Origin: Acholeplasmataceae bacterium
Lineage (GTDB): Bacteria > Bacillota_I > Bacilli_A > Acholeplasmatales > UBA5453
DNA length: 39,883 nucleotides
NCBI GenBank assembly: GCA_012522345.1
Contig: JAAYKO010000061.1
Coordinates: 1 to 39,883 of the forward strand
Reading direction: 5' to 3'
The notes beneath the pieces were generated by a model, which saw nothing but the letters and a program-made list of their open reading frames with translations, had not been told where the DNA came from and did not search any database. Both the position numbers and the translations under genes were made by a program. Positions 1 through 25,214 of the stretch are shown here, piece after piece; the first letter of the stretch is position 1; every line of letters starts with the position of its first letter.

Positions 1-134
1 ACTTTAGGAGCAGTCGAAATTCATGGTGAGGCGTTTTGCTACCCTAAAGATTTTTGCTACTTATAAACTATATACCTATATCGGTAGCGCACCAACCTGT
101 TTTGCTACCCTAAAGATTTTTGCTATTAAAAGAA
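1..134 (+). CRISPR. 3' (leader-distal) end of a CRISPR array, type II-like repeat: tail of a repeat (1-2), spacer (3-32), full repeat (33-68), spacer (69-98), degenerate terminal repeat (99-134)
   Basis: 36-nt repeat GTTTTGCTACCCTAAAGATTTTTGCTACTTATAAAC at 33-68. Its first 27 nt recur exactly at 99-125, followed by a diverged 3' end. Both intervening spacers are exactly 30 nt. Bases 1-2 'ac' match the repeat's 3' end. GTTTT...AAAC termini and 36/30 geometry are typical of type II arrays. Confidence 0.88.
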
Positions 135-165
135 GAGATTTTGATTCGTTTAACTCTCTTTTTTT
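133..165 (+). terminator. Putative intrinsic terminator downstream of the CRISPR array
   Basis: AAGAGA...TCTCTT imperfect stem (with TT/AA extension across a bulged C) followed by a T-run. Confidence 0.5.
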
Positions 166-182
166 GTTTGCTTTAAAATTTG

Positions 183-209
183 TTGGCACTTAACAGTTGA
201 CAGTGCCAA
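183..209 (+). promoter_or_regulatory. CIRCE-like HrcA operator
   Basis: TTGGCACTT-N9-CAGTGCCAA, a 9-9-9 inverted repeat resembling the CIRCE consensus TTAGCACTC-N9-GAGTGCTAA. It overlaps the -35 box. Confidence 0.75.
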
Positions 210-225
210 TTTGATATGATATACT
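197..225 (+). promoter_or_regulatory. Sigma-A type promoter of the hsp20 gene
   Basis: TTGACA (197-202), 17-nt spacer, TATACT (220-225). Confidence 0.75.
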
Positions 226-254: not shown

Positions 255-665
255 ATGTACAGAATTCAAAGAAGACGTAGAAGTCCTTTTAACATTTTTG
301 ATGACCTTTTTGATAATGCTTTTACACCTACAAGGCATTCTTTGTTGAAAACCGATATTAAAGAGAAAGACAAGGGTTATGAACTGATTGTTGATGTTCC
401 TGGAATGGAAAAAGAAGATATAAAAATAACCTTAGAAAATGGTTATCTATGTATAACTGCAAAAAAGACTAAAGAAGAAGAGGTTAAAGAAGAATATTAT
501 CTTCGCAAAGAACGCACTCAAACAGGTGCAACAAGACGCTTTTATGTCGGTGAAAGAATTAGTGAAGAAGACATTAAAGCTAAATTAGAAAATGGTGTAT
601 TAACATTAGAGGTTCCAAAAGAAGAGGAAAAGGTTTCTACAGAAAAAGTAATTGAGATTCGTTAA
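255..665 (+). CDS. Small heat shock protein, Hsp20/alpha-crystallin family
   Basis: 136 aa with an alpha-crystallin domain (ELIVDVPGMEKEDIKITLENGYLCITAKK...LENGVLTLEVPK); RBS gggagaga upstream. Confidence 0.93.
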   Translation: MYRIQRRRRSPFNIFDDLFDNAFTPTRHSLLKTDIKEKDKGYELIVDVPGMEKEDIKITLENGYLCITAKKTKEEEVKEEYYLRKERTQTGATRRFYVGERISEEDIKAKLENGVLTLEVPKEEEKVSTEKVIEIR

Positions 666-25029: not shown

Positions 25030-25062
25030 AAAAAAGATTATAAAATGATATAATGAAGATGG

Positions 25063-25144
25063 TTACTACGGGGAGCATTATGCTGAGAGGATTAATAATC
25101 GACCCGCAAACCTGATCTGGATAATACCAGCGGAGGAATAGTAA
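25063..25144 (+). ncRNA. TPP (THI-box) riboswitch
   Basis: TTACTACGGGGAGC...GCTGAGAGG...GACCCGCAAACCTGATCTGGATAATACCAGCGGAGGAATAGTAA; P1 TTACTA/TAGTAA; TATAAT at 25049-25054. Confidence 0.97.
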
Positions 25145-25214
25145 TAATAGTTTTGTAAATATTATTCTTTTGGGTAAATCCAGAGGAATTTTTTCATTTT
25201 TAAAGGAGGTCCAA

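What the first reader, a model, noticed from the sequence alone, without database searches (positions are those of the whole stretch)
1..134. Truncated end of a type II-like CRISPR array at the left edge
A 36-nt repeat (GTTTTGCTACCCTAAAGATTTTTGCTACTTATAAAC) is followed by an exact 30-nt spacer and a second repeat copy with its last ~9 nt degenerated. Bases 1-32 also fit as the last 2 nt of a previous repeat plus another 30-nt spacer. GTTTT...AAAC ends and 36/30 geometry point to a Cas9 (type II) system. The degenerate copy and following terminator-like hairpin mark the leader-distal end, so the rest of the array, and probably cas9/cas1/cas2 and tracrRNA, should lie to the left. Cas9 orthologues from AT-rich Mollicutes-like bacteria are compact and often have unusual PAMs, so this is the best lead to an undescribed system.
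Basis: partly seen in the sequence, partly recalled or inferred. Interest (0 to 1): 0.78.

Follow-up and report, generated by a model that had tools for sequence, protein, structure and literature searches.

The report
Tail end of a Cas9 CRISPR array
The left edge of this window is the far end of a bacterial immune-memory array whose Cas9 genes and helper RNA were found intact on another piece of the same genome: an ordinary Cas9 system, new only in its host and its exact sequence.

Summary
Window 1-134 holds repeat tail (1-2), 30-nt spacer (3-32), 36-nt repeat (33-68), 30-nt spacer (69-98) and a terminal repeat degenerate after 27 nt (99-125), then a terminator-like hairpin (128-165). The repeat occurs at only one other place in the 1.34-Mb draft genome: the end of contig C87. 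There it follows a complete type II-A operon: cas9 (1,095 aa, SaCas9-like, catalytic residues kept), tracrRNA with anti-repeat and terminator, cas1, cas2, csn2, leader, array. The two contig ends are halves of one locus: in the sister genome (Acholeplasma sp. MAG AS05jafATM_61) pyk-hsp20 and znuA-znuC-znuB-fur, which flank the two halves, lie side by side with no CRISPR between them. The sister carries a related system (63% Cas9 identity) between dnaE and a PFK gene, which are adjacent and CRISPR-free here. Repeat and anti-repeat co-vary across three genomes. It is a new member of subtype II-A with the gene order already described for Mollicutes, not a new kind of system. No spacer target was found, so the PAM is only a residue-based prediction (G at position 3, purine at 4).

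The parts
1..2 (+). last 2 nt (AC) of a truncated CRISPR repeat at the contig end
   Evidence: sequence
3..32 (+). CRISPR spacer, 30 nt
33..68 (+). 36-nt type II-A CRISPR repeat
69..98 (+). last (leader-distal, oldest) spacer, 30 nt
99..134 (+). terminal repeat, intact for 99-125, degenerate in its last 9 nt
   Evidence: the same kind of decayed last repeat is seen in sister genome G001
128..165 (+). hairpin with T-run, probable terminator of the pre-crRNA
   Evidence: fold -9.2 kcal/mol, z = -2.1; a stronger one occupies the same place in G001. The terminator scan did not list it; its stem is A-T rich and its loop long
183..209 (+). inverted repeat TTGGCACT-N11-AGTGCCAA in the hsp20 promoter (CIRCE/HrcA-like operator); marks the flank shared with the empty site of G001
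   Evidence: CIRCE resemblance from general knowledge
255..665 (+). hsp20, right-hand flanking gene of the CRISPR locus
   Evidence: PF00011; the G001 orthologue lies about 0.2 kb from znuA

Best explanation
Window 1-165 is the leader-distal end of the single CRISPR array of a complete type II-A CRISPR-Cas9 locus that the assembly split inside the array. Full order: znuA (reading away) - cas9 - tracrRNA - cas1 - cas2 - csn2 - leader - array (unknown number of units) - decayed last repeat - terminator - hsp20 (reading away). Shown by sequence: the genes, the repeats, the anti-repeat, the co-varying pairing and the neighbourhood. Inferred from the family: the array is transcribed rightwards from a promoter in the leader; tracrRNA, made from its own promoter in the end of cas9, pairs with each repeat; RNase III cuts the duplex; Cas9 with crRNA:tracrRNA cleaves invading DNA next to its PAM; Cas1-Cas2-Csn2 with Cas9 add spacers at the leader end on contig C87, so the spacers in this window are the oldest.
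For: Repeat only at two contig ends, 66-nt period. Cas9 TIGR01865 E = 4e-175; catalytic D9, E513, H597, N620, H759, D762 all present. Cas1 type II (TIGR03639, 5.8e-81) and Cas2 (2.6e-23). Csn2 (PADLOC, 7.6e-46). Anti-repeat between cas9 and cas1 with -37.1 kcal/mol cognate pairing; non-cognate repeat/tracr pairs from sister genomes only -22 to -30. tracrRNA terminator and TTGACA-17-TAAGAT promoter. Empty site in G001: queT-like - pyk - hsp20 next to znuA-znuC-znuB-fur, colinear with window and C87, which ties the two contig ends together.
Against: The middle of the array is missing from the assembly. No spacer of this genome matched any phage, viral contig (exact 20-22 nt) or Acholeplasmatales genome, so activity and target are not shown. 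No expression data.
Confidence: 0.97

Rival explanations
1. Two separate arrays: the window's fragment is an orphan array served in trans by the cas locus on C87.
For: The assembly does not join them; sister G001 does have a small second array upstream of cas9.
Against: C87 has the leader end and no distal end, the window has the distal end and no leader; the flanking genes of the two halves are direct neighbours in G001.
Confidence: 0.02
2. A dispersed mobile or palindromic repeat, not CRISPR.
For: Only two copies are visible in the window.
Against: Only 4 copies genome-wide, 66-nt spacing, next to cas genes, matching anti-repeat in the tracrRNA.
Confidence: 0.005
3. A decayed, non-functional locus, like the degraded system reported in Acholeplasma palmae.
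For: The last repeat is degenerate; the only Acholeplasma system described in the 2019 survey is degraded.
Against: All four cas ORFs are open, catalytic residues and the repeat:anti-repeat pairing are kept; decay of only the last repeat is usual at leader-distal ends and also seen in G001.
Confidence: 0.08

Closest known systems
Type II-A CRISPR-Cas of Mollicutes (Ipoutcha et al. 2019, PMC6882279)
   Same: Order cas9 - tracrRNA - cas1 - cas2 - (csn2) - array, 36-nt repeats, SaCas9-like Cas9, tracrRNA with terminator
   Different: The host is an uncultured Acholeplasmataceae, a branch in which that survey found only a degraded system; repeat, tracrRNA and spacers are new sequences
SaCas9 (Staphylococcus aureus, PDB 5axw/7el1)
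   Same: Best sequence match in the PDB over nearly the whole length (E about 1e-156); PAM residues N985, N986, E993, R1015 correspond to N1040, N1041, E1048, R1060
   Different: R991 is I1046 here; about 40 residues longer
Streptococcus thermophilus CRISPR1 Cas9 (PDB 6rj9, 6m0v)
   Same: Second-best PDB match (E about 1e-120); tracrRNA between cas9 and cas1 there too (own knowledge)
   Different: Less similar Cas9; different repeat
CRISPR-Cas of Acholeplasma sp. MAG AS05jafATM_61 (G001)
   Same: Same operon, Cas9 63% identical, Csn2 56%, alignable repeat and tracrRNA
   Different: Sits between dnaE and a PFK gene instead of znuA and hsp20; about 29 visible spacers, none shared; extra mini-array upstream of cas9

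Membership tests
CRISPR array (type II repeat) | Regularly spaced identical repeats with unique spacers of near-constant length | tested here: met
   36/30 nt at both contig ends
Type II CRISPR-Cas | Cas9 with RuvC and HNH nuclease domains | tested here: met
   catalytic residues D9, E513, H597, N620, H759, D762
Type II CRISPR-Cas | tracrRNA with anti-repeat complementary to the repeat | tested here: met
   L007:2400-2275 minus strand; co-variation with the repeat in three genomes
Type II CRISPR-Cas | cas1 and cas2 of the type II branch | tested here: met
Subtype II-A | csn2 in the operon | tested here: met
   PADLOC Csn2 models, best E = 7.6e-46. No Pfam, NCBIfam or PDB sequence match; the structure model was too poor to use (pLDDT 41)
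Functional immunity | Spacers match mobile DNA beside a consistent PAM | tested here: inconclusive
   No match for the 4 spacers of this genome; only weak chance-level matches for about 40 spacers of two relatives
Functional immunity | crRNA/tracrRNA expression and target cleavage | not testable with these tools
   needs RNA-seq or assay

The most novel reading that the evidence does not exclude
In this small Acholeplasmataceae clade the complete cas9-tracrRNA-cas1-cas2-csn2-array cassette moves between chromosomal sites as a unit (reciprocal empty sites in two sister species) while its Cas9 changes the residue that reads PAM position 3 (Arg in two species, Gln in a third), giving close Cas9 relatives with different PAMs.
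Probability: 0.3. Interest if true: 0.45.

Novelty: new member of a known kind. Interest (0 to 1): 0.3.

Why it matters
It adds an apparently intact, compact Cas9 system from a branch of wall-less bacteria where a 2019 survey saw only a degraded one, with both guide-RNA parts defined, so its PAM and activity could be tested directly. The paired empty sites show where a CRISPR-Cas locus entered or moved in closely related genomes. It does not change the classification of CRISPR systems.

Tried and rejected
Spacer targets: blastn against 50,697 phage records, exact 20-25-nt scans of IMG/VR, 160 genomes of the order: nothing beyond the arrays themselves; four 89-93% matches of AT-rich relatives' spacers at E 4e-4 to 4e-3 across 160 genomes were treated as chance. 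Rfam gives no match for the tracrRNA region. The Csn2 structure prediction with 3 sequences was poor (pLDDT 41), so no fold search was run. A regulatory role of G001's mini-array spacer against its own cas9 promoter was tested: best other match in 16 kb is 19/30 with a 3-nt seed, i.e. none. Plasmid-borne relatives of Cas9 are all distant, below 60% identity.

Full report
WHAT IS IN THE WINDOW. Positions 33-68 carry a 36-nt repeat, 69-98 a 30-nt spacer, 99-125 a second copy identical for 27 nt and then diverged; positions 1-32 are the last two bases of a preceding repeat and another 30-nt spacer. A hairpin with a T-run at 128-165 follows (-9.2 kcal/mol, z = -2.1).

IS IT CHANCE OR A DISPERSED REPEAT? 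No. With up to 3 mismatches the first 27 nt occur four times in the 1.34-Mb, 91-contig draft genome: twice here (contig C41) and twice at the end of contig C87 in the opposite orientation, always perfect and 66 nt apart; the reversed-pattern control gives none.

THE REST OF THE LOCUS. C87 (locus L007) holds, reading towards its cut end on the minus strand: cas9 (5688-2401, 1,095 aa), tracrRNA (about 2390-2280), cas1 (2272-1376), cas2 (1386-1063), csn2 (1053-169), a leader with TATACT and the end ...TTTTTGAG, first repeat, spacer, second repeat, and a spacer cut by the contig end. Family models: Cas9 4e-175, Cas1 of type II 5.8e-81, Cas2 2.6e-23, Csn2 7.6e-46. The nearest solved structures are SaCas9, then S. 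thermophilus CRISPR1 Cas9. RuvC and HNH residues D9, E513, H597, N620, H759 and D762 are in place (the assignment of roles is from the SaCas9 literature, own knowledge).

THE GUIDE RNA PAIR. Between cas9 and cas1 lies an anti-repeat followed by nexus-like and terminator hairpins (GAACTCGCAGGTTTGCGGGTTC CTTTTTTT) and preceded by TTGACA-N17-TAAGAT. In two related genomes, G001 (same genus) and G002 (same family), the repeat and the anti-repeat differ from this one in step: each repeat pairs with its own tracrRNA at about -37 kcal/mol and with the others' at -22 to -30. That is direct comparative evidence for a working dual RNA.

THE TWO CONTIG ENDS BELONG TOGETHER. In G001, identified by its matching record as Acholeplasma sp. 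isolate AS05jafATM_61, hsp20 and znuA lie head to head in one contig, with a queT-like gene and pyk beyond hsp20 and znuC-znuB-fur beyond znuA. The window has hsp20, pyk and the queT-like gene after the array; C87 has znuA-znuC-znuB-fur before cas9. The CRISPR-Cas cassette therefore sits in this intergenic space in G000, and the window's left edge joins C87's left end. Conversely, G001's own system lies between dnaE (contig C32) and a PFK gene (contig C29), and these two genes are neighbours without CRISPR in G000 (contig C24). Neither empty site keeps a repeat remnant above chance. So the two sister species hold related systems at different places: separate acquisition or relocation. Which of the two cannot be told from two genomes.

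POLARITY. The leader is on C87, so the window is the old, leader-distal end. G001's array ends the same way: a last repeat decayed from position 25 on, then a strong terminator hairpin.

HOW IT MOST LIKELY WORKS. As an ordinary type II-A system: the pre-crRNA is cut by RNase III after pairing with tracrRNA, Cas9 cleaves matching DNA beside a PAM, and Cas1-Cas2-Csn2 with Cas9 add new spacers at the leader. This is inference from the family; the components are shown, the activity is not.

PAM. No spacer target was found. In SaCas9, R1015 reads G at position 3, N985 contacts position 4, and N986 and R991 influence positions 5-6 (PMC8811835, PMC6361995). Aligned residues here are N1040, N1041, I1046, E1048 and R1060: R1015, N985, N986 and E993 are kept and R991 is lost, which suggests NNGR with relaxed positions 5-6. 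G001 has N, N, K, E, R; G002 has N, N, V, E and Gln at the R1015 place, so its PAM may differ. PMC8811835 also shows that these residues do not fully predict the PAM: orthologues with all five residues identical read different PAMs.

NOVELTY. The order cas9-tracrRNA-cas1-cas2 with csn2 and a SaCas9-like Cas9 is the standard Mollicutes arrangement (PMC6882279). That survey found only one, degraded, system in the Acholeplasma branch, so an apparently intact one is a useful new member and nothing more.

Noticed in passing
window 183-225: CIRCE/HrcA-like inverted repeat (TTGGCACT-N11-AGTGCCAA) overlapping a TTGACA-N17-TATACT promoter in front of hsp20; the same kind of element stands in front of hsp20 in G001.
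   Followed up: partly
window 25059-25155 and 2303-2376: TPP riboswitch and a tRNA gene, both above Rfam gathering scores.
   Followed up: no
L010:2564-4088 (G001): Mini-array upstream of cas9: one full repeat, one spacer and a truncated repeat, then a 464-aa ORF without Pfam match, then another truncated repeat; the ORF is flanked by partial CRISPR repeats.
   Followed up: partly
L010:10042-10213 (G001, contig C32 end): The array folds back on itself as an inverted copy of its last spacers at the contig end, which looks like a chimeric assembly artefact.
   Followed up: no
L007:5854-5895: Sequence TTTTGCGAATGGTTTGCA upstream of znuA is conserved with G001 and may be a zinc- or iron-responsive operator (a fur-like gene ends the operon).
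   Followed up: no
L037:2-1711 (G002): The Cas9 of a third genome has Gln where this one and G001 have Arg at the SaCas9 R1015 position, so its PAM may differ at position 3.
   Followed up: partly
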